Source: Paenibacillaceae bacterium GAS479 (GTDB taxonomy: Bacteria; Bacillota; Bacilli; Paenibacillales; Paenibacillaceae). Taken from it: a stretch of DNA of 64,000 bases. The notes under the pieces are model-generated. The model was not told where the DNA came from. It saw only the letters and a program-made list of their open reading frames with translations, and searched no databases. The DNA is taken from contig LT629764.1 in NCBI GenBank assembly GCA_900105225.1, positions 818,098 to 882,097 of the forward strand, given 5' to 3'. Shown one piece after another: positions 29,646-45,783 of this stretch (positions within the stretch are counted from its first letter, which is position 1; the number at the start of each line of letters is the position of its first letter). Both the position numbers and the translations under genes were made by a program.

Positions 29646-32009
29646 TTACTTGAGCTCCGCGACCGTAACTCCTGCGCCGCCCTCACCGTAGTTACCGAGC
29701 CTATAGCTCTTCACATGAGAGTGGCGGCGGAGGAAATCCTGAATGCCGGCTCGTAATACACCGGTGCCTTTGCCATGGATAATGTACACTTGCCCCATGC
29801 CCGAGAGGAACGATTCATCAAGGAAACGATCCACCTCGATAATGGACTCATCCAAGTTGGAGCCGCGAAGATCCAATTCCATCTTTACGTTATCCTCGCG
29901 AGTTCGTTTCAACGTTGCAGCCGCAGCCTTAAGCGCTACCTTTGGTGCAGGAGCTTGCTTGACCAGCTCCAGGTCAGTCAGCTTGACCTTCATTTTCATA
30001 ATGCCAAGCTGTACCAGTGCCTCTGAGCCGGAAAGCTCTACGACATGCCCGCGCTGATTGAGGCTATGCACCCGAACCTCGTCACCCGACTCAATGGCAC
30101 GCTCAGAAGCAGCGACGCGGGAATTTTGTCTTCCTTGGACGAGCTGAGGTGAAGCCTCCTCCAATCGCTTGCGAGCCTCGGTCAGCTTATGATCTTTGAC
30201 CGACGCCCCTTCCTCACGCTGAAGCTGGCGCAGCTCTTGAATGATCTCGTCGGCCTCGCGGCGGGCTTTTTGCACGGCTTGCCGCGCCTCCTCCTGCGCC
30301 TTCGCCAGCATGCGCTCGCGCTGCTCCTCGAAACGGCGCAGTTCCTCATCATAGAGGTTGCGCTCCTCTTCAAGCTCGCGGCGCAATTGTTCCGCACCGG
30401 CTCGCTCCTGCTCTGCACTCTGGCGATCGCGCTCCAGTGACTGGATCATATTTTCCACTCGGAGATCATCCTCGCTGACCTCGCCGCGCGCTTGTTGAAT
30501 AATCATCTTGTCCAGACCGAGCCGCTCTGCGATTGCAAAGGCATTACTTCGCCCTGGAACGCCAACGAGCAAGCGATACGTTGGACTTAACGTAGCCACG
30601 TCAAACTCCATACTGGCGTTGATGAGTCCGCTTCGATTATAGGCGTAAGCCTTCAGCTCGCTATAATGGGTTGTCGCCAACAGTCGGCACCCTGTCCGAT
30701 GAATATGGTCAAGGATCGAGATCGCCAGTGCTGAGCCTTCGGCAGGGTCGGTACCGGCTCCCAATTCATCGAGCAGCACGAGGCTGCGCGGAGTCATTTC
30801 CCGCAAAATGCGGATGATATTGGTCATATGACTGGAAAACGTACTAAGACTCTGCTCAATGCTCTGCTCATCGCCGATATCGGCGTAAATGGCATCAAAC
30901 ACACATAACTCCGTCCCGTCATCAGCCGGCACAAACATACCTGACATTGCCATCAAGCTTAGCAGACCAACTGTTTTGAGTGCGACCGTTTTACCGCCGG
31001 TATTGGGGCCGGTGACGATAATACCGGTATGACTAACTCCAAGCTCCAGGTGAAGAGGAACGGCTTTATCGCGATCAAGCAGTGGATGGAAACCACGCTT
31101 CATTATAATTCGGCCTTCATCGTTCATTCGTGGCTGCTCGGCCTTCATCTCATGAGCTAGCTGCGCCTTAGCAAAAGCAAAGTCCAAGTGAGCCAAATAA
31201 TCATGATTAATGGCCAGGTCCTCAGCTGCTTCTGCGGCAAGTGCGGTCAGCTTTTGGAGAATGCGTTCAATCTCGCGCGCTTCAGCAGCCTTCGTTTCGC
31301 GCAGCTTGTTGTTCATCGCTACGACTGCCTCCGGCTCGATAAACAGCGTCGCCCCGGAGTTGGACTGATCATGAACTATGCCACCGAAATGGCCGCGATA
31401 CTCCTGCTTGACTGGAATGACATAGCGGTCTCCGCGAAGTGTAATCAGGCTGTCCTGCAGCATCTTCTGTACAGACGAGGAGCGCAGCATTCCTTCCAGC
31501 TTTTCGCGAACTTTGCCTTCACCTTGCCGCAGCTCCCGACGGATGCGGGCCAGCTCAGGACTTGCGCTGTCCAGCACCTCACCAGTTTCCTCGATGCAGT
31601 CGAGAATTTCATCTTCCAGCTCCCGCCTCGGATACATGCTCTCTGCAAGATGAGCAAGCAGCGGCATAGGCTTTTCTTCATGCAAATGCAGCACATGATT
31701 GCGCACTCTGCGGGCTCCCCGTGCGGTAAGTGCGATCTCCAACAGCTCGATAGGACTTAATGTCCCGCCGATGACTGCACGCTTCAAATGAGCACGAATG
31801 TCGGCTACTCCACGGAAAGGCGCATTGCCTTTGAGCCGATAAGCGTCCGATGCCTCGGCTGTTGCTTGCAAAGCATGAGCAACTTGCTCGAGCTCAGAAT
31901 TCGGAGTGAGATCCTCCGCCATCTGTAAGCCCATCGGAGTAGCTGTATGTTGAACTAATTTATGAATAATTTTGGCATATTCAAGTGTGTGTAAAATTTT
32001 GCTGTCCAC
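29646..32009 (-). CDS. mutS2: Endonuclease MutS2
   Basis: 787 residues, GTG start. MutS-type ATPase with Walker A GPNTGGKTVALKTVG, LVLLDELGAGTDPAEGSALA (Walker B) and STFSSHMTNI signature; then a long coiled coil (about 510-640) and a C-terminal Smr nuclease domain with LDLRG, HGKGTGVLR and RLGNYGEGGAGVT. MutS2 acts on branched or recombination intermediates and on collided ribosomes in Bacillus rather than in mismatch repair. In many Bacillales it follows zapA-cvpA-polX; here cvpA and polX are missing between zapA and mutS2. Confidence 0.95.
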   Translation of the reverse strand: MDSKILHTLEYAKIIHKLVQHTATPMGLQMAEDLTPNSELEQVAHALQATAEASDAYRLKGNAPFRGVADIRAHLKRAVIGGTLSPIELLEIALTARGARRVRNHVLHLHEEKPMPLLAHLAESMYPRRELEDEILDCIEETGEVLDSASPELARIRRELRQGEGKVREKLEGMLRSSSVQKMLQDSLITLRGDRYVIPVKQEYRGHFGGIVHDQSNSGATLFIEPEAVVAMNNKLRETKAAEAREIERILQKLTALAAEAAEDLAINHDYLAHLDFAFAKAQLAHEMKAEQPRMNDEGRIIMKRGFHPLLDRDKAVPLHLELGVSHTGIIVTGPNTGGKTVALKTVGLLSLMAMSGMFVPADDGTELCVFDAIYADIGDEQSIEQSLSTFSSHMTNIIRILREMTPRSLVLLDELGAGTDPAEGSALAISILDHIHRTGCRLLATTHYSELKAYAYNRSGLINASMEFDVATLSPTYRLLVGVPGRSNAFAIAERLGLDKMIIQQARGEVSEDDLRVENMIQSLERDRQSAEQERAGAEQLRRELEEERNLYDEELRRFEEQRERMLAKAQEEARQAVQKARREADEIIQELRQLQREEGASVKDHKLTEARKRLEEASPQLVQGRQNSRVAASERAIESGDEVRVHSLNQRGHVVELSGSEALVQLGIMKMKVKLTDLELVKQAPAPKVALKAAAATLKRTREDNVKMELDLRGSNLDESIIEVDRFLDESFLSGMGQVYIIHGKGTGVLRAGIQDFLRRHSHVKSYRLGNYGEGGAGVTVAELK

Positions 32010-32300: not shown

Positions 32301-32657
32301 ATGAGCTTTCTTGGACATGTCGTGCGCTTCGTCGTTTCGGCGATCGTGCTGATGCTGGTCGGCTTTATCGTTCCCCAGTTCGCAGTAGGCGGCTTTTGGA
32401 GCGCTTTGCTTCTGGCGCTCGTCATCGCGCTGTTCGGCTGGGTAATTGAAGGAATCTTCGGCAAAAGAGTCACACCATTCGGCCGCGGAATCGTCGGCTT
32501 CGTCGCCAGCGTCATCGTCATCTATGTGGCCCAGTTTATTGTTGGCGGCGTAACCGTAACTTGGCTTGGCGCCATCCTTGCTGCTTTGGTGATCGGAATT
32601 ATCGACCTGTTCATTCCGACTCCATTCGACGCTGGACGGAGCAAAGAAGCACGTTAA
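32301..32657 (+). CDS. YvlD-like phage-holin-family membrane protein
   Basis: 118 residues with four hydrophobic segments and IVPQFAVGGFWSALLLALVIALFGWVIEGIFG, RGIVGFVASVIVIYVAQFIVGG and the IDLFIPTP ending typical of the mycobacterial-4TM holin superfamily to which YvlD belongs. AGGAGGG lies upstream of the ATG. In Bacillus YvlD relatives are linked to envelope stress operons, but it stands alone here, inserted between mutS2 and zapA on the opposite strand. Confidence 0.82.
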   Translation: MSFLGHVVRFVVSAIVLMLVGFIVPQFAVGGFWSALLLALVIALFGWVIEGIFGKRVTPFGRGIVGFVASVIVIYVAQFIVGGVTVTWLGAILAALVIGIIDLFIPTPFDAGRSKEAR

Positions 32658-32831
32658 TTCAGAGGAAATCGGAAGATTGCCATCTCGGCAACTTCCGACT
32701 TCTTACATAGATTGTCATCATTTGTTCATTCCTTTTGGCAGCCTGTCCATTCCAGCAAGCCGTCGAATTGGGTATGATGAAGATAACAATCTTGTAAATT
32801 CTGAACCCCCCGATCCGAAAGGAGCTTGTAT

Positions 32832-33227
32832 ATGATTCGTACTTTATCCCGGCGCCTGCCGCTTTTCGCTTTGACTGCGCTTATTCTGCTAGTTACTGCT
32901 GCATGCGGAGGAGGAGCCGTTCCAACATCCGATGGTCCGACTGCGGCTGTTGAGACTACTGCGGAGCCAACACAAGAAGTTGTTATCAAAGCAACGAACT
33001 ACGAGTTCGACCAGAAGACGTACACAGTCAAAAAAAGCGATGCTCTGAATATTAAGCTTGAAAGCGACGGCATCCATGGCATCCGTATCAGTAACACATC
33101 GGTCAAAATGAAGCCCGGTGAAGCAAAGGTGTATTCCTTCAGCCTTGCTGGCGAATACCAAATTGAGTGCAGCATTCCTTGCGGCCCTGGTCATGAGCGA
33201 ATGAAAGCTGTGCTCAAAGTCGTCTGA
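32832..33227 (+). CDS. Cupredoxin lipoprotein with a CuA-like copper site
   Basis: 131 residues from ATG 32832 (AAAGGAG seven bases upstream). Lipoprotein signal with lipobox TAAC, then a cupredoxin fold: SDGIHGIRISNTSVKMKPGEAKVYSF supplies the first His, and CSIPCGPGHERM supplies Cys, Cys, His and Met in the C-x3-C-x3-H-x2-M spacing of the binuclear CuA centre of cytochrome oxidase subunit II. No membrane helices or oxidase subunits are nearby, so it is a free-standing copper protein on the outer face of the membrane; electron transfer or copper delivery is inferred. Confidence 0.82.
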   Translation: MIRTLSRRLPLFALTALILLVTAACGGGAVPTSDGPTAAVETTAEPTQEVVIKATNYEFDQKTYTVKKSDALNIKLESDGIHGIRISNTSVKMKPGEAKVYSFSLAGEYQIECSIPCGPGHERMKAVLKVV

Positions 33228-33304: not shown

Positions 33305-36300
33305 TCAGCTCTGCTCAATGAGTTCGATCCACTCGTTGTATTCAGTCTGAAGCTTGGAGTACTCCGTCCGAAGCTTGTCGAACTCCGTTTTTAGCTGCTC
33401 GTAGGAAGTGCTGATTCGCTCATTGTCATGCTGCAGCTGATCAATATCCTGTCGGCTGCCGGAACGTTCCTCCTCCAGCTGTCGAAGTGCATCTTCCATT
33501 CGCTCCACCGCCGTATCTGAAGCGGCGGCCTCTTGTAGGGCGAGCTGCAACTGACGCTTCAACTCTTCCTCATTCTCGGCGCGATCGCTCTCCAAACGGG
33601 AAAGCCGTTCCACCTCTGTACCGCGCTCGGCGGCCAGTTGTTCCAACCGTTCACGCTCGCGACTCAATGTCTCCATGCGTTGCTGCCAATCGCGTTCCGC
33701 CTGCTCACGAGCCGATTCTGCCAAACCAATCGTTTCTGAGGCGCGCCGCTCAAGCTGCTGGAGCCTTGTTGTTGCATCGGCCAACTGCTGGCGGAGTTCC
33801 TGCGAATCTTGTTCATGAGTGGCTTTGTTTGTCTGCAGCAGTTCTGCAGATTCGCGAACCTGCTCCTCGAGCTCAGCAGCCCGACGGCGGGACAGCTCAA
33901 GCTCTTCCTGCGAGCCGCGCAGCATGCGTTGAGACTCTTCTAAAAGACGGCCGCGCGCTTCCTCTTGCTCCATAACGAACAGTAAATGTTCTTCCGCCTC
34001 AGCAATTCGCTTGGCCCAGTCCTCCCGAGCTTCAGCCAGTGCTTTGCGAGCCGAATCCGTTGCCCCTTTAAGCTCTGCGCGCTCTTCTTCCCACAATGAC
34101 GACAGACGTTGCTTCTCTGCCTCTGCATCCGCCTCGATACCTGCTGTTTGCGAGTTCCATTGCTGCTCACGTTCACGCAGCTGACGTTCTGCCTGCTCTG
34201 CACGATCCAGCGCATCCACAGCTTCCGCCTGCAGCTCTTCTAACTGCTTCGCCGTCGCTGCCTGCTGTTGCCCGGCATTCCCGCGCAGTTGCTCCAGCTC
34301 CGCTGCATGAGCAGCCTCCAGCTGTTCGCGAGCTTCTAACGCCATAAGCTGCGCCAGCTCCAACTCCTCGGCAGCTTCGCGGCGCAAGCGATCCGCCTCG
34401 GCAGCCGCTGCTGCCTGCAGCTTGGCCGCACGCTGCTCAGCGGCTTCAGCCGCCTCGCGCAGCAATGCCTCCGCAGCTTGCTCGCGCTGCACTACCTGCG
34501 CGTCTGCGCTCTCTCGCGCATGCGCAATTTCTGCCTCGGCGCGCTCCAGCGCCTCGCGCAGCTCAGCCGCTGCAGCTTCGCGCTCTGCAGCAGAGCTCGC
34601 GCGCAGCCGCTCCAGCTCCGCCTCTACCGCGGCGGCGCGTTCCGCCAGCGCTTGCTGCTGCCGCGCTGCCGCAGCAAGCTGCTCGCGGGCCTCTTGCAGC
34701 TGCCCGCGCGCCTCGGCGCCGTCCTGCTCCGCAACGTCCGCGCGCGAGTCAACCTCCGCGAGGCGGCCCTCCGCCTCCTCGCGCTTCGTCAGCTCCGCTG
34801 CTAGCCGCAGCTCCGCTTTTTCGCGCAGCTGCAGTTCCTCCTGCAGCTGCAAACCAGATGCCTCCAGCCGGATGCTGTGCTCCTCCAGCTGTTGCTCAGC
34901 ATCCTCGCGCTTCGCCTGCTCCGCAGCAAGTTGCTGCTGCGCCTCGCTAAGCGCGACTTCTGCGGCTTTGCGTTCCGCAGCCGCACTCGCCTGCAGCTCT
35001 TGCAGACGCTGCTCCAGCTCGGCACGCTTGCGCTGCGCCTCAGCCAACCGCTCCCGCTGACCCGCCAGCCCAGCTTGCAGCTCGTCAGCTCTCTTCTCCG
35101 CTTCCGCTTCAGCCTGGACCAATTGCGCTGCATGCGCCTCGCTTAGCCGCTCCAGCTCGGCACGCTGCTCCGCCTCGCGTCCTACAAGCTTTGCTTCAAG
35201 CTCGCCAACTGCCTTCTCCGCTTCCGCAGCAGCCTGGGCCAATTGCGCTGCATGCGCCTCGCTTAGCCGCTTCAGCTCGGCACGCTGCTCCGCCTCGCGT
35301 TCAGCAAGCTTCGCTTCAAGCTCGCCAACTGCCTTTTCCGCTTCCGCAGCAGCCTGGGCCAATTGCGCTGCATGCACCTCGCTCAGCCGCTCCAGCTCGG
35401 CACGCTGCTCCGCCTCGCGTCCAGCAAGCTTCGCTTCAAGCTCGCCAACTGCCTTTTCCGCTTCCGCAGCAGCTTGGGCCAACTGCTCTGCATGAGCCTC
35501 GCTCAGCCGCTTCAGCTCGGCACGCTGCTCCGCCTCGCGTCCTGCAAGCTTCGCTTGCAACTCACCAGCTGCCTCTTCCGCAGCTGTCATAACTTCTAAC
35601 AGCTGCGTCTCAAGCTCACCAGTTGCCTTCTCTGCAGCTGCCGCAGCCTCGGCCAACTGCGCCGCATGGGCCTCGCGCAGCCGCTCAAGCTCTGCTCTCT
35701 GCTCCTCCAGTTGCGTACCATGCGCCTCGCTAAGCCGTTCAAGCTCTGCTCTCTGCTCCTCCAACTGCGCACCATGCGCCTCGCTAAGCCGCTCAAGCTC
35801 CGCACGCTTCTCCGCCTCGCGTCCAGCGAGCGCACCTTCAAGCTCGGCACGCTGCTGCAGCTTCAGCGCCGCCAGCTCTTGCTCGCGGTTTTTGCGCTCA
35901 GCAAGCAGCTTCGCTTCCAGCCCGCCAATCTGCTCGCGATACAGCGCTTCACGTTGTCCAAGCTCGTCGCTCTGCTGTTCTAGTAGCTTAGCTCGCTCTT
36001 CTTCACGCTCGCGGCATTCCGCCTCGTAAAGCTGCTCAAGCTCTGCACGCTCACGTTCACGTGCTTCGGCTTCGCCATTATACAGCTGCTGAAGCTCGCC
36101 AATGCGCGCCATTAAGCGCTCTTCCAGCTCCAAAAGCTCCAGCGCGTAAGTCTCTTCCCGCGCAGACAGCTCCGTCGCATGAGCAGCCTGCAACGACTCA
36201 CGCTGCTGCTCGTATTGCAGAGCCGCCTCCGCGCGCTCTTCCTCAAGCCGCTTCTGAAGCTCGTTGCGGCTTTCTTCCAGCTGCACGCTCAGGCGATTCC

Positions 36301-37042
36301 GTTCGGTTTCCAACTGCTTTTGAACAGCTGCACGCTCCGATTCGTAACGCTTCTGGGCTTCCTCCAGCTTCTCTGCATGGAGTGCCTCACGCTCGCGGGC
36401 TTCCGATTCATATAAGCGCTCCCATTCCTGGCGTTCCGTCTCCAACAGCTTGGTGGCGTCGCTGCGCTCCTCCTCGTGGCGACGCTGCAGCTCATCATAC
36501 TGCTCCCGATGAGCCTCCAGCAAACGCTCACGTTCCAGCTGCCACTTCCGTTCCAGTCCAGCCGCCGCTTCGGCGCTTTCGCGCTCCAAGCGCTCCGTCT
36601 CATCCTTAACAGCAGCTTGTACAGCGGCTAGTCGTTCCTCCGCCTCGGCGCGCAGCTTGCCTTCAGCAGTTTCCCGCTCCTCCGAAAGACGCAACAGCTC
36701 GATAAGAGCCTCTTCCTCTTGGCGAAGCAGTTCAGCTTTTGCTCCCTCCGCTGCTTCCTGAGCCTTTTCCAGTTCACCCATCAGCGTTTTGCGGATATTC
36801 TGCTCTTCCTTGAGCAGTTCGCTGTCCTGCTTCAGACGGAAAACATCCTCCGCCATATGCATGGCCGCAAGCACCGCCAGCCTCGGCATGTCCAGCCTAG
36901 GGTAACCCTTGGCCAATTTATGCATGTTATCATCGACAAGAGCCGCCACTCTACGGATATAGTCCGAGCTGGTATGCCCTGTCAATCTGTATTGATGTCC
37001 GTATATATCCACCGTAACTTTTAAGCGATCGGCTTCTTTCAA
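33305..37042 (-). CDS. zapA: ZapA-domain protein with giant coiled-coil extension
   Basis: 1,245 residues from TTG 37042, chosen because GGGAGG lies eight bases upstream; a longer frame without a site starts at 37150. Residues 6-80 are a normal ZapA domain (LKVTVDIYGHQYRLTG, DYIRRVAALVDDNM, YPRLDMPRLAVLAAMHMAEDVFRL), the FtsZ-bundling cell division factor, usually about 85-100 residues in bacilli. Residues 80-1245 are unbroken Glu/Ala/Leu/Arg coiled coil, including four 40-residue repeats. Place in the genome (downstream of pheST) is that of the native zapA, so this seems to be the organism's own ZapA, not an extra copy. A Z-ring spacer or scaffold role is inference. Confidence 0.85.
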   Translation of the reverse strand: MKEADRLKVTVDIYGHQYRLTGHTSSDYIRRVAALVDDNMHKLAKGYPRLDMPRLAVLAAMHMAEDVFRLKQDSELLKEEQNIRKTLMGELEKAQEAAEGAKAELLRQEEEALIELLRLSEERETAEGKLRAEAEERLAAVQAAVKDETERLERESAEAAAGLERKWQLERERLLEAHREQYDELQRRHEEERSDATKLLETERQEWERLYESEAREREALHAEKLEEAQKRYESERAAVQKQLETERNRLSVQLEESRNELQKRLEEERAEAALQYEQQRESLQAAHATELSAREETYALELLELEERLMARIGELQQLYNGEAEARERERAELEQLYEAECREREEERAKLLEQQSDELGQREALYREQIGGLEAKLLAERKNREQELAALKLQQRAELEGALAGREAEKRAELERLSEAHGAQLEEQRAELERLSEAHGTQLEEQRAELERLREAHAAQLAEAAAAAEKATGELETQLLEVMTAAEEAAGELQAKLAGREAEQRAELKRLSEAHAEQLAQAAAEAEKAVGELEAKLAGREAEQRAELERLSEVHAAQLAQAAAEAEKAVGELEAKLAEREAEQRAELKRLSEAHAAQLAQAAAEAEKAVGELEAKLVGREAEQRAELERLSEAHAAQLVQAEAEAEKRADELQAGLAGQRERLAEAQRKRAELEQRLQELQASAAAERKAAEVALSEAQQQLAAEQAKREDAEQQLEEHSIRLEASGLQLQEELQLREKAELRLAAELTKREEAEGRLAEVDSRADVAEQDGAEARGQLQEAREQLAAAARQQQALAERAAAVEAELERLRASSAAEREAAAAELREALERAEAEIAHARESADAQVVQREQAAEALLREAAEAAEQRAAKLQAAAAAEADRLRREAAEELELAQLMALEAREQLEAAHAAELEQLRGNAGQQQAATAKQLEELQAEAVDALDRAEQAERQLREREQQWNSQTAGIEADAEAEKQRLSSLWEEERAELKGATDSARKALAEAREDWAKRIAEAEEHLLFVMEQEEARGRLLEESQRMLRGSQEELELSRRRAAELEEQVRESAELLQTNKATHEQDSQELRQQLADATTRLQQLERRASETIGLAESAREQAERDWQQRMETLSRERERLEQLAAERGTEVERLSRLESDRAENEEELKRQLQLALQEAAASDTAVERMEDALRQLEEERSGSRQDIDQLQHDNERISTSYEQLKTEFDKLRTEYSKLQTEYNEWIELIEQS
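35110..35590 (-). repeat. Four 120-bp tandem repeats in the ZapA coiled coil
   Basis: Copies align at exactly 120 bp and encode a 40-residue unit containing REAEQRAELERLSEAHAAQL and AEKAVGELEAKL. Forty is not a multiple of seven but equals 7+11+11+11, so the helix may be a mixed heptad/hendecad coil. High DNA identity shows recent expansion; weaker copies continue to about 35840. Confidence 0.85.
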
Positions 37043-37172
37043 GGCGGTATCCTCCCGTTGTTGTTTGAGCTGCTCTCCTGATGTCTGTCTCCGTTGCCGG
37101 AGGGCCGCTGGGGCCGCTCCTGCGGTAGCTCGTTCCGGCATAACCTTCATCCGAAGCCGCTTACCGCCGCTT

Positions 37173-39985: not shown

Positions 39986-41020
39986 TTACATTCTTGCGAA
40001 CTGGCTCAGGAAGCGCAGATCATTCGTGTAGAAATGGCGAATATCATCGATACCGTATTTGAGCAGAGCGATGCGCTCGATGCCCATACCAAAAGCAAAA
40101 CCGGTCACTTCCTCAGGATCGTAACCGCCGGCTTGGAGCACCTTTGGATGAACCATGCCGCAGCCGAGAATTTCCAGCCAGCCCGTTCCTTTGCACATCC
40201 GACAGCCTTTGCCTCCGCATTGGGAACAGGTCATATCAACCTCGGCGCTTGGTTCGGTGAACGGGAAGAAGCTTGGGCGCAGGCGGATACGCGCTTGTTT
40301 GCCGAACATCTCCTGTACGAATTGCAGCAGCGTTCCTTTGAGATCGCTCATGCGGATGCCTTTGCCAACGACGAGACCTTCCACCTGATTGAACTGGAAG
40401 GAATGAGTCGCGTCGTCATCATCGCGGCGGTAAACCTTGCCAGGGCAGATGATTTTGAGCGGGGATTTACCGTTCATCGCCTTCATCGAGCGGATTTGCA
40501 CAGGAGAAGTCTGCGTACGCATCAGAATTTCATCCGTAATGTAGAAGGAATCCTGCATGTCGCGGGCTGGGTGGTTTTTAGGCAGATTAAGAGCCTCGAA
40601 GTTGTAATAATCGGTCTCCACCTCAGGACCTTCCGCAATCGTGTACCCCATGCCGATGAAAATATCCTCGATCTCCTGAGCTACCTTGTTGAGCGGATGA
40701 ACCGCTCCTGCAGGCAGCGGGCTGCCCGGCAAAGTGACGTCAATCGTTTCGGAGCGCAAACGCTCCTCCGTTTCAGCGCGGCGGAATGCGGCGCTTTTCT
40801 CCTCGATAACGGCCTCAATCGCGCCGCGAACGCTGTTCGCTACCTCACCGATGACCGGACGCTCCTCTGCGCTAAGTGCGCCCATGCCGCGCAAAATCTC
40901 GGTCAGCGCACCCTTTTTGCCCAAATACTTAACGCGAAGATCACTCAGCTCCTGTGGGCCTGTTACTCCTTGCAGCTCCTGCAGCGCTTCTGCGCGCAGC
41001 GCCTCCAAACGTTCCTTCAT
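39986..41020 (-). CDS. pheS: Phenylalanine-tRNA ligase alpha subunit
   Basis: 344 residues from ATG 41020, supported by AGGAGG eight bases upstream; the frame continues back into the leader but that part is the T-box RNA. Class II synthetase motifs: [51 protein letters not shown] near motif 2/3 and [22 protein letters not shown] (motif 3). [13 protein letters not shown] insertion is present, common in Gram-positive PheS. Confidence 0.97.
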
Positions 41021-41094
41021 CGCTAATGCCTCCTTGTGCTTAGTTCCAGCCAATCTGCTCAGCGGGATCAATTTACTTTTTCTGGGATATAAAA

Positions 41095-41460
41095 AAACAA
41101 AAAAGGCCCTCTCCGCTAGGGACGAAAGGACCGTGGTACCACCCTGATTCCAGCCGTAAGAAGGCACGAATACGAGCACAAACATGGGGCTCGGATTTCG
41201 CAATACTTCTCAGCGCATGAATGCGCCTGGCTGCTTAATAGCCGAATAACGGACGGCTGACCCGCGAGTCTCTATTGGCGCTGAATCGGCGCGTTCAAGT
41301 CTCAAGCTCTGGAGTGAATTCGGGCCGGCTGGTTGTCCGGGATCGCTCTCAATCGGCGGCGTTCCCTCCCTGTGGATCAAGCACGGCGTACTAGTCTCCG
41401 TCATCGCTGTATGGGATGTGTTACAGACATGATTTTTTCAGACATTTTATTTCAAACACT
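41095..41460 (-). promoter_or_regulatory. T-box riboswitch leader of pheST (Phe)
   Basis: The T-box GGGTGGTACCACGG is at 41144-41131 on the minus strand, followed by a terminator hairpin (GGTCC/GGGCC) and a long T-rich run at about 41090-41105. Upstream, AGTA (near 41390) and GAATTC with a candidate UUC specifier at 41318-41316 fit the specifier-loop E motif. Uncharged tRNA-Phe pairing would stabilise the antiterminator and switch on pheST. Confidence 0.9.
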
Positions 41461-41553: not shown

Positions 41554-42021
41554 TTAGCTTTTACGCCAAATCCCGCCTGAACAATGGGTAAATCCGCATT
41601 TTTGATAAAAGTCCAAATGTTTGGCAGCAAACGTCAAAGTGACGATTTCAAGCCCTTGCCGTTCTGCTTCCTCCAATAATGTTGCGATTAATTTTCGACC
41701 GATGCCTTGTTTTTGATAATCTGGATGAACGATTACATCCTCTAAATATCCATGCTGCAACCCCATGCCGGTAATGTAGCCAAAAGCAATAAGCTTGCCG
41801 TCTGCGTCCCTTGCACCCGCCCAGAAGTTGCATCGTTCAAACAGAACTGGATAATCACCGTCTCGTCGTTCCCAGCCTGCTGACTCCCGAAGATTGGGCA
41901 CTTCAATCTCCAAGAGCTTTGGGTTGATTATAATTTCGATTTTGTACTCCCCTTCATATCGTTTTGCGGTGCGACGATCATCGGCTTGTCCTGCGTCCAA
42001 TAATGATAAGGCAATATCCAC
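41554..42021 (-). CDS. GNAT-family N-acetyltransferase
   Basis: Up to 155 residues. Core GNAT motif: LEDVIVHPDYQKQGIGRKLIATLLEEAERQG (Q-x-x-G-I-G acetyl-CoA loop) and LDFYQKCGF near the end. The start is unclear: GTG 42021 lacks a good ribosome binding site and the first 35 residues do not look like the domain, so an internal start after AAGGGGAG near 41945 is possible. Substrate unknown. Confidence 0.8.
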   Translation of the reverse strand: MDIALSLLDAGQADDRRTAKRYEGEYKIEIIINPKLLEIEVPNLRESAGWERRDGDYPVLFERCNFWAGARDADGKLIAFGYITGMGLQHGYLEDVIVHPDYQKQGIGRKLIATLLEEAERQGLEIVTLTFAAKHLDFYQKCGFTHCSGGIWRKS

Positions 42022-42045
42022 CCGTTACTACTATGCGTTATCTGC

Positions 42046-42879
42046 TCAAAAGCTCTCCGGTCCCCGGTTGCGATCCATCAAGCCATGCTCGAAGGCATAA
42101 CGAGTCAGTTGCACGCGGTTGTCGAGATGCAGCTTTTGCAGGATGTTTTTGAGATGGTTTTTGACCGTATGCTCGGATATTCCGAGCGTGTGGGCCACCT
42201 CGCGGTTGGGCTCTCCTAGAGCGACTCGCTCCAAAATCTCCTTTTCGCGCTCGGTGAGCGGGGTGGTGGACTGGCTCGTGGAACTGCGCGACGGAGTCGA
42301 AGCAGCCGATGCCACGCGGCTCTCGCGACTGCGATTGGGAAGAAACTCATGAAGAATTCGTGTGGCGAGCTCACGGCTCATCGGAGCTTCGTCCAGCGAT
42401 ACCGCTCGCAAGTAATCCAGCCATGCGGATGGCGAAAGATTTTTTAGCAAATAACCTTGCGCACCCCGCTTGATCGCTTCGAACAAATCGGCTATGTCGT
42501 CAGATACGGTAACCATAACAATCTTTACCGAAGGCAGGATACTTTTGATGCGCGAGGTCGCTTCCAGCCCATCGATACCCGGCATGCGGATATCCATCAG
42601 AATGAGTTCCGGCTGCAGTTGCTCCGCGAGCAGTACCGCCTCTTCACCGCCCGAAGCCTCGCCTGTCACTTGGAAAAAAGCATCCTCTGAGAGAATGATA
42701 CGCATTCCTTCGCGTCCATGTGGGTGATCATCCACGAGCATTACGCTCACAGGGCCTCGACTCGCTACAGATGCCTCTTTACCGTCCAGCGTTCCCTCAT
42801 GATCACTGTTTAATGGCTTCTGGCCATTGCCTCCGCCACTCCCAGACTGATCAAAACCCGACTGCTGATTTGTATTCAA
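42046..42879 (-). CDS. NarL/FixJ-family response regulator
   Basis: 277 residues, TTG start eight bases after AGGAGG. A 42-residue polar N-terminal tail precedes the receiver domain (VMLVDDH, phospho-acceptor Asp in LILMDIRMPG, Thr in MVTVSDD, Lys in YLLKNL); a Ser/Thr-rich linker leads to the LuxR-type HTH (LTEREKEILERVALGEPNREVAHTLGISEHTVKNHLKNI). Cognate kinase is the next gene upstream on the same strand, 71 bases away. Confidence 0.92.
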   Translation of the reverse strand: MNTNQQSGFDQSGSGGGNGQKPLNSDHEGTLDGKEASVASRGPVSVMLVDDHPHGREGMRIILSEDAFFQVTGEASGGEEAVLLAEQLQPELILMDIRMPGIDGLEATSRIKSILPSVKIVMVTVSDDIADLFEAIKRGAQGYLLKNLSPSAWLDYLRAVSLDEAPMSRELATRILHEFLPNRSRESRVASAASTPSRSSTSQSTTPLTEREKEILERVALGEPNREVAHTLGISEHTVKNHLKNILQKLHLDNRVQLTRYAFEHGLMDRNRGPESF

Positions 42880-42950
42880 ATGCTCCGCCTCCTTTTGACT
42901 GCCGATTTAATTACATCATACTTGTCATACTTGCTCCCTAACGATGCGAT

Positions 42951-43817
42951 CTAGCGCTGATTTACTCGTCCTACCTGCGAAGAATTCTTTACAATCTCCA
43001 CCGTGGTGCCTTGCTTCTGTCCGTCAGATGGGCTCCGAAAAGCAAAGTCCCAACCGGCTCCGCGAGCCCGGTCATTCATCATCCGAACTCCGTAACGGCC
43101 CTTTGCCAGCTCCGCTCCAGCAGCAGCGCCCACCCCATCGTCGGTGACGGAGCAGCGGAAACCGTCCGTTCCTTCCTGCCTACAGGTTACTTCAACGAAG
43201 GAAGCGGCCGCATGTTTGCGTACATTCATCAACGCTTCCCGGATGATGGCCAATAGTTCAACCTTTTCGCGGCTTGTCAGCAGCACATCAGGCAGTTTCC
43301 AGTCAATTTGCATCTCGATTCCGGAATCCTGCAACTCAGCAGCTGCCCCACTCAGCGACTGCAGCCATGGCAAGTCGGACACCTCCGGTGCAGAGCGCAA
43401 ATTGGCAATCGATTCCCGGACATCCTCGTAAACATGGCGCACTGTACCTCGTATTTGCTCCGTCGTCTCACGGATCTCCTCCGACGATTGCGCCCGGTCG
43501 AGTCTGTCCAGCTTGACCGAGAGCAGAAAAAGTGACTGAGATATGCCGTCATGCAGCTCCCGAGCCAGCTGATCCCGCTCCTGGATGGACACTTTCACCG
43601 CCTGCTCCCGACGCAGCTCTTCCTGCACATTGTCATGCATGCGGAACAACTTGCTAAGCAACGTAACGGTCACAAGAAACACGAGAATTGGACTGATAAC
43701 ATTGCCGGTGTCCATAGAAACGTAAGGTAGCAAAAACGTGTGCCTCGCGTATTCCCAGGCGGCGGTCAGAAAGGTCGGCGTCCATAGGATCAGCCGCTTA
43801 ATCGTTACTGCCTTCAT
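42951..43817 (-). CDS. Sensor histidine kinase, HisKA_3 type
   Basis: 288 residues. Two N-terminal hydrophobic segments with a very short external loop, then a dimerisation helix with the phospho-acceptor His in RELHDGISQSLFLLSVKLD and an HATPase domain (EALMNVRKHAAA, VTDDGVGAA, YGVRMMNDRA). The lack of an outside sensor domain puts it in the intramembrane-sensing (LiaS-like) style. It lies between the regulator gene and a copper-resistance gene, 19 bases from the latter's stop; a copper link is possible but unproven. Confidence 0.9.
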   Translation of the reverse strand: MKAVTIKRLILWTPTFLTAAWEYARHTFLLPYVSMDTGNVISPILVFLVTVTLLSKLFRMHDNVQEELRREQAVKVSIQERDQLARELHDGISQSLFLLSVKLDRLDRAQSSEEIRETTEQIRGTVRHVYEDVRESIANLRSAPEVSDLPWLQSLSGAAAELQDSGIEMQIDWKLPDVLLTSREKVELLAIIREALMNVRKHAAASFVEVTCRQEGTDGFRCSVTDDGVGAAAGAELAKGRYGVRMMNDRARGAGWDFAFRSPSDGQKQGTTVEIVKNSSQVGRVNQR

Positions 43818-43836
43818 GCTCGCTCACCTGCTTTCA

Positions 43837-45759
43837 TCAGTAGTTGCGGAAGCTTGTTTGCACTTCTCGCTCCACACCTTTTTCATCAACGACCCGAATC
43901 TCGGCCCTCCAAAGACCTGGGAAAGGAAGATAGGTTCCCGTAGTACGATAAGCCGTTTTTATATAACCGTCGAAAGTGCTAATCTCATCATCCTGGAACT
44001 TTTCAAGCGGGATTTCGATCGCGCCAACCTCAGGCTTGTCGACAGGAATAAGGCTCAGCTTGACGGATTTTGGATTGCCAAGCGATTTGAACATCCAGAT
44101 GCGCGTTGTGAATTCATTGCTGCCTGGCACATTGGGGGTGATCCGCAACGAGACATGCATCTCGCTGCCCATCTTATGCCATGAGACGGGCTCGTTAGCC
44201 GGCAGCGGGCTGATATAAGTAAACACGGCGACTATGACGAGAATGAGCCCCATCAGCGCACCGTCCGCCTTGAGCAGGACGCCACTCGGGAAGCCAGAGC
44301 GCTTCATACGGCGACGTAGCAAAAAGCCAATTACGGTGACCAGTATAACAAGTCCCGCTTTTACAAGCAGCAGTATACCCCATGGGGTTATTAACAGATA
44401 CTCCAGCTTGGTCATATATAACAGCGTGAGTAGAATTCCGCTCAGTGATAACACGGCGATGCTGATCCATGCTGCACGGGAGAAGCTCTCTGCGAAACGT
44501 CCTGCCTCCTTGCGTTCTCCGTACCAAAGCGCGATCAACAGCATCAGGCCGCCGGCCCAAAGAGCTGCTCCAACCAGATGCACGAAGTCGAGCGACAGCG
44601 TTGCCCAGCGAGGCGAAGAAGCCGCCGCATGTCCGTTCCACGTTTCTGTAGCAAGCAGCAGCAGTCCCCAAACGGCACGCAGTGAAACTCGCCCCACTGG
44701 CAATGAGAGTCCGGCAAAAGCGAGCAATAGCAGAGCTACATAGCTCTGACCGACCGACGTGCTGGTGAACAGCGGTATCCATTCCGCCGAGGACTGGCCC
44801 ACCATAATCCCCGTACTTTCCACGAAAACGTACAACAGCGAGACTAGAACGAGCGCTTGCGCCGGAAGTTTAGCGAACCTTTCGCGTAGCAGCTGTGAAA
44901 TACCTTCCCAGCGGCTGCGATACAAAAGTGGCCAAAGCGCGCAGCCAGCAGCCAGCATCAAGGCCACATAATAAAGGAAGCGCACAGCATACAGCACAAG
45001 AGTCGCTGTCGTCAGAGCATCATCGCTATGCCCTTCATGCCCGAGTTGGGTGTGGATATTGTATGTAGAAGCGTCTTTTGCCGGAGGGGGCTCGCCAATA
45101 ACGAACACATAAGAGCCATTAACAGGATGGCCATCCTCGGATATGACCTTATAGTTTACGGTATAAGCACCGGCTTTCAGCGACGGCAGCCCCAGTGTCA
45201 ACGTCAGGCCGTCTTCGCTGAGCAACGCCTTGTTGTTCGTTACTTTGGACGAGTTGCCGTCCAATACTTCAAGCACCCCGACTGAGGCTTCCAGCTTTTC
45301 GTTAAAGGTGACTTTGACCTCGGCTGGCGGGCTCTCCAGACGCGCTCCCGCCGCGGGATAAGCCTCCTTGAGGGCAGCATGGGCCGAAACTTGATCCGGG
45401 GCCGCAAGCATTAGCGGCATGAGGGCTATGAACGCCAGCAGAAGGCCGGCTATTGGCCGCTTTGGGCGGGTGAGGAGCCGCAATTGGCAGGCGGAAAGCC
45501 GCTTTGGGCGGGTGATGAGCCTCATTTGGTGAGCGGAGAGCCGCTGTAAGCAAGCGTAGGACCGCTGCTGGCGAGCGGAGCGCCGCAATTGGCGGGCGGA
45601 AAGCCGCTGTGGGCGGGTGATGAGTTCCATTAGGAGGCTGAAGAACCGCATTAGGCGGGCTTTTGGCGAGCCTACAGCATGGAACATTTTCCATGCCCCC
45701 ACCAGCCTCAGCAGAAGGAAAAGATATAAATTAATAAAAGGCCCTGTAAAGGCATTCAT
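43837..45759 (-). CDS. CopC-CopD fusion copper protein (YcnJ-like)
   Basis: 640 residues from ATG 45759 (GGAAAGGAAG upstream). A signal-like segment (AGLLLAFIALMPLMLAAPDQVSA) is followed directly by HAALKEAYPAAGARLESPPAEVKVTFNE, the CopC domain whose N-terminal His binds copper; then a GHEGHSD linker, eight CopD-type membrane segments and a C-terminal YtkA-like domain. Such proteins bind and import or handle copper. Unusual: about 104 residues lie before the signal peptide, including ten basic heptads (see repeat), so either the true start is internal or the protein has a novel cytoplasmic tail. Confidence 0.82.
   Translation of the reverse strand: MNAFTGPFINLYLFLLLRLVGAWKMFHAVGSPKARLMRFFSLLMELITRPQRLSARQLRRSARQQRSYACLQRLSAHQMRLITRPKRLSACQLRLLTRPKRPIAGLLLAFIALMPLMLAAPDQVSAHAALKEAYPAAGARLESPPAEVKVTFNEKLEASVGVLEVLDGNSSKVTNNKALLSEDGLTLTLGLPSLKAGAYTVNYKVISEDGHPVNGSYVFVIGEPPPAKDASTYNIHTQLGHEGHSDDALTTATLVLYAVRFLYYVALMLAAGCALWPLLYRSRWEGISQLLRERFAKLPAQALVLVSLLYVFVESTGIMVGQSSAEWIPLFTSTSVGQSYVALLLLAFAGLSLPVGRVSLRAVWGLLLLATETWNGHAAASSPRWATLSLDFVHLVGAALWAGGLMLLIALWYGERKEAGRFAESFSRAAWISIAVLSLSGILLTLLYMTKLEYLLITPWGILLLVKAGLVILVTVIGFLLRRRMKRSGFPSGVLLKADGALMGLILVIVAVFTYISPLPANEPVSWHKMGSEMHVSLRITPNVPGSNEFTTRIWMFKSLGNPKSVKLSLIPVDKPEVGAIEIPLEKFQDDEISTFDGYIKTAYRTTGTYLPFPGLWRAEIRVVDEKGVEREVQTSFRNY
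45448..45657 (-). repeat. Ten 21-bp repeats encoding basic heptads
   Basis: Seven-residue units such as RPKRLSA, CQLRLLT, RQLRRSA and HQMRLIT repeat ten times without a gap. Exact 21-bp phasing and the DNA core CCGCCCAAAGCGGC point to a minisatellite that happens to stay in frame ahead of the copC signal peptide. Confidence 0.8.
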
Positions 45760-45783
45760 GCTTGCCCTGCACTTCCTTTCCAA

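What the first reader, a model, noticed from the sequence alone, without database searches (positions are those of the whole stretch)
33305..37042. ZapA fused to a giant coiled coil of about 1,160 residues
A normal 75-residue ZapA domain, in the native zapA position next to pheST, continues without break into one of the longest coiled coils expected in a bacterium. ZapA cross-links FtsZ filaments over short distances; a rod of this length would change Z-ring geometry or connect it to other structures. Internal 120-bp repeats show that length is still evolving.
Basis: partly seen in the sequence, partly recalled or inferred. Interest (0 to 1): 0.75.

Follow-up and report, generated by a model that had tools for sequence, protein, structure and literature searches.

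The report
Division-ring protein with giant rod
A small protein that ties cell-division filaments together has, in this bacterium and many of its relatives, been stretched into a rod several to more than ten times the usual length while both of its ends were kept, which suggests an unusually long-range cross-linker in the division ring.

Summary
The gene at 33305-37042 (minus strand) encodes a 1,245-residue ZapA from a conserved TTG start, the only ZapA found in its 5.52 Mb genome. It is not a local fusion. All 8 genomes searched in its genus have a long ZapA (open frames 974-1293 aa), and 140 of the 150 matches printed for its family are 500 aa or more. 134 matches in the class outside the order have a median of 102 and a maximum of 258 aa. 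Within the order, frames run from 129 to 1,746 aa. Short and long forms share two conserved ends: the ZapA head and a C-terminal tip (EYxKLQxEYNEWIELIEQ) resembling the ordinary ZapA C-terminus. So the rod looks like an insert inside ZapA, not an added tail. It is proline-free, has hydrophobic spacing of about 3.6 residues, and is under purifying selection (dN/dS 0.14). Repeat units mostly keep the coiled-coil seam in phase. Best explanation: an FtsZ-binding head at one end and the ancestral self-association helix at the other, giving an FtsZ cross-linker with a reach of about 180 nm (or twice that tip to tip). Shown: architecture, range, selection. Inferred: oligomer geometry and function.

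The parts
36845..37042 (-). ZapA head (residues 1-66), including TTG start at 37040-37042
   Evidence: Pfam ZapA 9-93; PDB 2mmv E 2e-16; AlphaFold beta-beta-alpha-alpha, Foldseek top 5 rows all ZapA; conserved in 64 sequences of 300 aa or more down to about residue 66
37051..37056 (-). GGGAGG ribosome-binding site
   Evidence: Sequence; conserved in 8 of 8 genus genomes
33395..36844 (-). Coiled-coil rod (residues 67-1216)
   Evidence: No proline, periodicity 3.6; conservation mostly at coil baseline over the first 80 positions; dN/dS 0.142 over 1,086 codons against P. herberti
35079..35581 (-). Tandem array, 120-bp (40-aa) unit, 4.2 copies
   Evidence: P. herberti lacks one 40-aa unit here
35653..35800 (-). 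Tandem array, 54-bp (18-aa) unit, 2.7 copies
   Evidence: P. herberti lacks one 18-aa unit here
33308..33394 (-). Conserved C-terminal tip (residues 1217-1245), ...KLQTEYNEWIELIEQS, resembling the ordinary ZapA C-terminus
   Evidence: no second match in own genome at E 10; predicted as part of a single helix
37525..39963 (-). pheT, upstream neighbour
39986..41203 (-). pheS
29646..32009 (-). mutS2, next minus-strand gene downstream

Best explanation
It is a ZapA whose C-terminal helix has been lengthened internally. Two heads form a dimer that binds FtsZ, as in ordinary ZapA. The helices leave the head as a coiled coil of about 1,150-1,190 residues (about 177 nm if straight, 0.1485 nm per residue). 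The far end carries the ancestral ZapA end helix, which in characterised ZapA bundles two dimers into a two-headed tetramer. Retaining that end while lengthening what lies between would give a long-reach FtsZ cross-linker: either tips meet (heads about 350 nm apart) or a tip docks near the opposite head (about 180 nm). Length evolves by gain and loss of repeat units that mostly keep the hydrophobic seam in phase. Shown: architecture, range, tip retention, seam bias, selection. Inferred: parallel dimer, tip self-association, cross-linking over distance.
For: Head: Pfam, PDB sequence and fold matches. Own FtsZ begins MLEF; PMC12216130 section 7 (that section read) says Gram-positive FtsZ conserves a phenylalanine at position 4 and suggests a function similar to the Phe2 that binds ZapA. 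Tip: in frame at the end of 75 of 83 proteins (73 of 81 genomes; two loci repeat genomes already counted); in 5 more genomes it lies in a later piece of the same region. A tip profile scores 8 of 19 ordinary ZapA C-ends above all 807 rod segments used as controls. The residues after the head fall mostly to coil baseline while the tip stays conserved. PMC12216130 section 7: tetramers are held by four bundled C-terminal helices. PMC12754632 (passages): tetramerisation is essential for ZapA function in E. coli. Repeat units up to 45 aa: 21 of 25 keep the seam, expected 49%, binomial P 3e-4.
Against: No oligomer was modelled or measured. Rods show no antiparallel charge complementarity (53 sequences, mean r -0.03), so full-length antiparallel pairing gets no support. 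The tip-profile alignment to ordinary ZapA falls mainly on its first half and its register is ambiguous by a heptad; 7 of 19 ordinary ends score like the top 3% of rods or lower, and two of the 8 best ends are near-identical to each other. The best solved Bacilli relative, 2mmv, is titled a ZapA mutant dimer, so tetramerisation in Bacilli is not established here. The seam test does not correct for relatedness.
Confidence: 0.5

Rival explanations
1. Adaptor: the tip binds another protein (nucleoid, membrane or divisome), so one polypeptide does what ZapA plus a coiled-coil partner (ZapB in E. coli, ZauP in Caulobacter) do elsewhere.
For: A strongly conserved tip at the end of a variable spacer also fits a partner-binding end. 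PMC12754632 passages describe ZapA-ZapB-MatP and ZapA-ZauP-ZapT as a signal from the chromosome terminus. Rod length tracks genome size weakly.
Against: The tip resembles the ordinary ZapA end, which needs no new partner. The genome-size trend loses much of its strength without its 5 largest contrasts.
Confidence: 0.25
2. Loss of constraint: the rod is a tolerated spacer whose length drifts by repeat slippage, without a role for its length.
For: Length varies widely among relatives, and the closest named relative differs by single repeat units.
Against: Rod dN/dS 0.105-0.153 in the 3 pairs with dS below 0.5; 0.07-0.27 in 5 more pairs with saturated dS; one pair not computable. Seam-preserving unit lengths; long in 140 of 150 printed family matches. 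None of these shows that length itself is selected.
Confidence: 0.17
3. It takes over the ring-organising role of EzrA, which most of these genomes seem to lack.
For: Only 7 of 60 genomes of the order pass the Pfam EzrA cut-off, best 71.9 bits; in the class sample 95 of 151 pass, up to 664 bits. In the own genome the only match, below cut-off, falls on the end of the ZapA rod itself.
Against: Members of the order with ordinary-length ZapA also lack EzrA (e.g. six genomes with 182-222 aa frames, no match), and so do several families outside the order with short ZapA.
Confidence: 0.07
4. Annotation or assembly artefact.
For: Two of 81 genomes show the frame broken, and three more change frame at or after a run of unknown bases.
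Against: Open in 8 of 8 genus members, dN/dS 0.14, single-contig own genome.
Confidence: 0.01

Closest known systems
ZapA of E. coli, Klebsiella and Geobacillus (PDB 4p1m, 9isj/9isk, 2mmv; Pfam PF05164)
   Same: Head sequence and fold, helix leaving the head, C-terminal end pattern
   Different: Chains of 86-107 residues; here roughly 1,140 extra residues lie between head and end
ZapB (E. coli) and ZauP (Caulobacter) (seen in passages of PMC12754632; coiled-coil nature of ZapB and of the Caulobacter pair from reference titles there)
   Same: Coiled coil working with a ZapA head
   Different: Separate proteins there; here one polypeptide, and no sequence comparison with them was made
EzrA (PF06160)
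   Same: Long helical Z-ring regulator of Bacilli (recalled)
   Different: Membrane-anchored (recalled), no ZapA head; the only own-genome match is below cut-off and falls in this rod
Scy and FilP of Streptomyces (search listing only; Scy length and hendecad repeats recalled)
   Same: Long bacterial coiled coils
   Different: No ZapA head (recalled); not compared by sequence

Membership tests
ZapA (PF05164) | Pfam score over curated cut-off | tested here: met
   29.3 bits whole protein, 64.6 for the domain in the genome scan; cut-off 23.8
ZapA (PF05164) | beta-beta-alpha-alpha head with long C-terminal helix | tested here: met
   AlphaFold model (residues 1-30 low confidence, pTM 0.39); Foldseek top 5 rows are ZapA, only the first with E below 0.001
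ZapA (PF05164) | Sole zapA, beside pheST | tested here: met
ZapA (PF05164) | Binds FtsZ and bundles it as a tetramer | not testable with these tools
   Needs protein; FtsZ phenylalanine at position 4 is present
ZapA (PF05164) | Length near 100 residues (usual, not strictly defining) | tested here: not met
   1,245 aa; 134 class matches outside the order: 74-258 aa
EzrA (PF06160) | Pfam score over cut-off | tested here: not met
   20.4 bits against 39.6
Coiled coil | Hydrophobic periodicity near 3.5-3.67 | tested here: met
   Window rod 3.62-3.63; 65 of 66 rods exceed all 100 of their shuffles, peaks 3.48-3.66

The most novel reading that the evidence does not exclude
A bacterial family uses a length-tunable ZapA as a molecular ruler or reach arm of the Z ring: two ends fixed, spacer length evolving in coiled-coil-compatible steps and growing with genome (perhaps nucleoid or cell) size, replacing separate ZapB-like or EzrA-like factors.
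Probability: 0.18. Interest if true: 0.88.

Novelty: new variant of a known kind. Interest (0 to 1): 0.64.

Why it matters
ZapA is a textbook short-range FtsZ cross-linker. An order of bacteria whose ZapAs run from about 130 to 1,740 residues, with the same two ends and a freely varying reach, is a natural experiment on what cross-link distance does in the Z ring: swapping rods of different length between strains would test it directly.

Tried and rejected
Antiparallel charge complementarity along the whole rod: no signal in 53 sequences. EzrA replacement: absence is order-wide and not tied to ZapA length. The higher-scoring EzrA matches in the order that I looked at (L120-L123) are secreted or membrane proteins, judged by eye. 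Giant ZapA elsewhere in the phylum: 179 of 199 genomes had a match, not all rows printed, and the printed rows show none outside the order: two 666-aa frames read as 107 aa in the fetched DNA, and four frames of 248-354 aa (L147-L150) have Gly/Ala-rich tails instead of coils. Class-level inserts in L126, L129 and L131 (175-258 aa frames) look independent. Genome size against length: rho 0.47 over 147 family rows; independent contrasts r 0.64 on 54 genomes with a usable PheT end and 0.57 on 74 of 81 genomes (left out: two broken genes, two contig-end genes and the three with unknown bases), falling to 0.37 without the 5 largest contrasts; sign test 45 of 68, P 0.01, and not significant in any of three subsets. 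Kept as a lead. Literature: nine full-text searches, eight of them on ZapA, Paenibacillus or Bacilli division; the listings (cut to 8-20 papers) show no report of long ZapA, and only openly licensed PMC papers are held. PMC7246612: passages only.

Full report
Observation. On the minus strand of 33305-37042 an uninterrupted frame starts at a TTG (37042) behind GGGAGG and encodes 1,245 residues. The longer frame from the ATG at 37150 is less likely, because the TTG and its ribosome-binding site are conserved in 8 of 8 genomes of the genus while the upstream frame is not. Residues 9-93 match Pfam ZapA, and the genome holds no other ZapA match at E 0.001. The nearest solved protein is Geobacillus ZapA, 2mmv. 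AlphaFold, with only 3 aligned sequences, gives two strands, a helix and then one unbroken helix from residue 52 to 149, with low confidence in the first 30 residues. Foldseek's first five rows are ZapA structures, the first at E 6e-4 and the others above 0.3. The last 180 residues are predicted as a single helix, mean pLDDT 90.

Rod. Residues 96-1215 contain no proline and are rich in Glu, Ala, Leu, Arg and Gln. Large hydrophobic residues recur every 3.62-3.63 residues, with a power of 5.1 against a maximum of 2.1 in 300 shuffles. In the set of 66 rods (two genomes occur twice; three have runs of unknown bases dropped), 65 exceed all 100 of their own shuffles; the exception is L106. Peaks lie between 3.48 and 3.66, and 56 of 66 have no proline. 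The strong periodicity of large hydrophobic residues argues for a coiled coil over a lone helix, though 84-residue windows of the window rod starting at 656-712 and 824-880 are only weakly periodic; when Ala is counted as hydrophobic the signal drops to 2.4 (shuffle maximum 2.1).

Range. The genus: 8 of 8 genomes have one ZapA, open frames 974-1293 aa. The family: 391 of 394 genomes have a match; the call prints 150 rows, the best-scoring ones, with a median of 961 aa, 140 of 150 at 500 or more, and a maximum of 1,616. The order: 60 of 60 genomes, 129-1,746 aa; a second family (f6) is also mostly long (18 of 19 genomes at 500 or more, range 139-1,746), one (f7) intermediate (8 genomes, 238-425, two of them cut by contig ends), and six families have 129-306 aa. 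The class outside the order: 134 best matches of 74-258 aa, median 102; one further weak match below the cut-off, in a 1,456-aa frame, was left out. Frames are counted stop to stop and so include some untranslated upstream codons.

Two conserved ends. Of these 83 proteins, 75 end in a tip of the general form EYxKLQxEYNEWIxLxE. Five more show it in a later frame or beyond a run of unknown bases. Two are cut by contig ends, and one short form (L099, 126 aa) lacks it. The search word fixed the Trp and its near neighbours, so their invariance is partly built in. But Leu at -14 and -7 and Glu at -4, outside the word, are also invariant in 69 of 69 distinct tips. In 64 sequences of 300 aa or more the head is conserved to about residue 66; the following 80 positions are mostly at coil baseline. 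The tip has no second match in the own genome at E 10.

Origin of the tip. Ordinary ZapAs of other Bacilli end in, for example, EYFRLREEYDELLRILEE; by eye this aligns without gaps with EYAKLQTEYNEWIELIEQ. A profile of tips scores 8 of 19 ordinary C-ends above all 807 rod segments; the others range from just below that to undistinguished. I conclude, with some uncertainty about register, that the rod lies between the head and the ancestral end. [quoted passage not shown]

Evolution of length. Against P. herberti (93% identical) the window protein has one extra 18-aa unit and one extra 40-aa unit, each one unit of its two tandem arrays, and lacks a 14-aa stretch. All three lengths fit 3.5-3.67 periodicity. 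Over the set, 21 of 25 recent repeat units of up to 45 aa do so, against 49% of lengths (P 3e-4; relatedness not corrected; 11 of 14 distinct lengths). Rod dN/dS is 0.142 over 1,086 codons, with dS 0.24; the head, over 75 codons, gives 0.216.

Mechanism. The heads should bind FtsZ; the genome's FtsZ begins MLEF, with the phenylalanine that PMC12216130 suggests acts as hook in Gram-positives. A tip kept at the end of a freely varying spacer most simply still does its old work of joining dimers, now at a distance of one or two rod lengths (about 177 nm each). That step is inference. A tip that meets another protein is the main rival.

Novelty. Searches for ZapA with Paenibacillus, coiled coils, Bacillus or divisome showed no description in the papers listed (openly licensed papers only, some lists cut). 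The protein is a ZapA; its size, clade-wide range and two-ended design make it a new variant.

Noticed in passing
window 33305-37042 and family genomes: ZapA length rises with genome size (rho 0.47, 147 genomes; contrasts r 0.57 on 74, 0.37 without the 5 largest).
   Followed up: partly
order sample, 60 genomes: EzrA passes the Pfam cut-off in only 7 of 60 genomes (best 71.9 bits) against 95 of 151 in the class sample.
   Followed up: partly
window 32301-33227: Between zapA and mutS2 lie two plus-strand ORFs (a holin-like 4-TMS protein by Pfam and, by eye, a cupredoxin), where in L115 and L116 a CvpA-like ORF (by eye) follows zapA.
   Followed up: no
L067, L072: Two long zapA genes look frameshifted inside the rod, with the tip in another frame downstream; assembly error or real break not decided.
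   Followed up: no
L147-L150: Four genomes of one genus outside the class have ZapA with a Gly/Ala-rich tail in place of a coil.
   Followed up: no
window 41554-45783: CopC/CopD copper protein with a two-component system and a GNAT acetyltransferase upstream of pheS.
   Followed up: no
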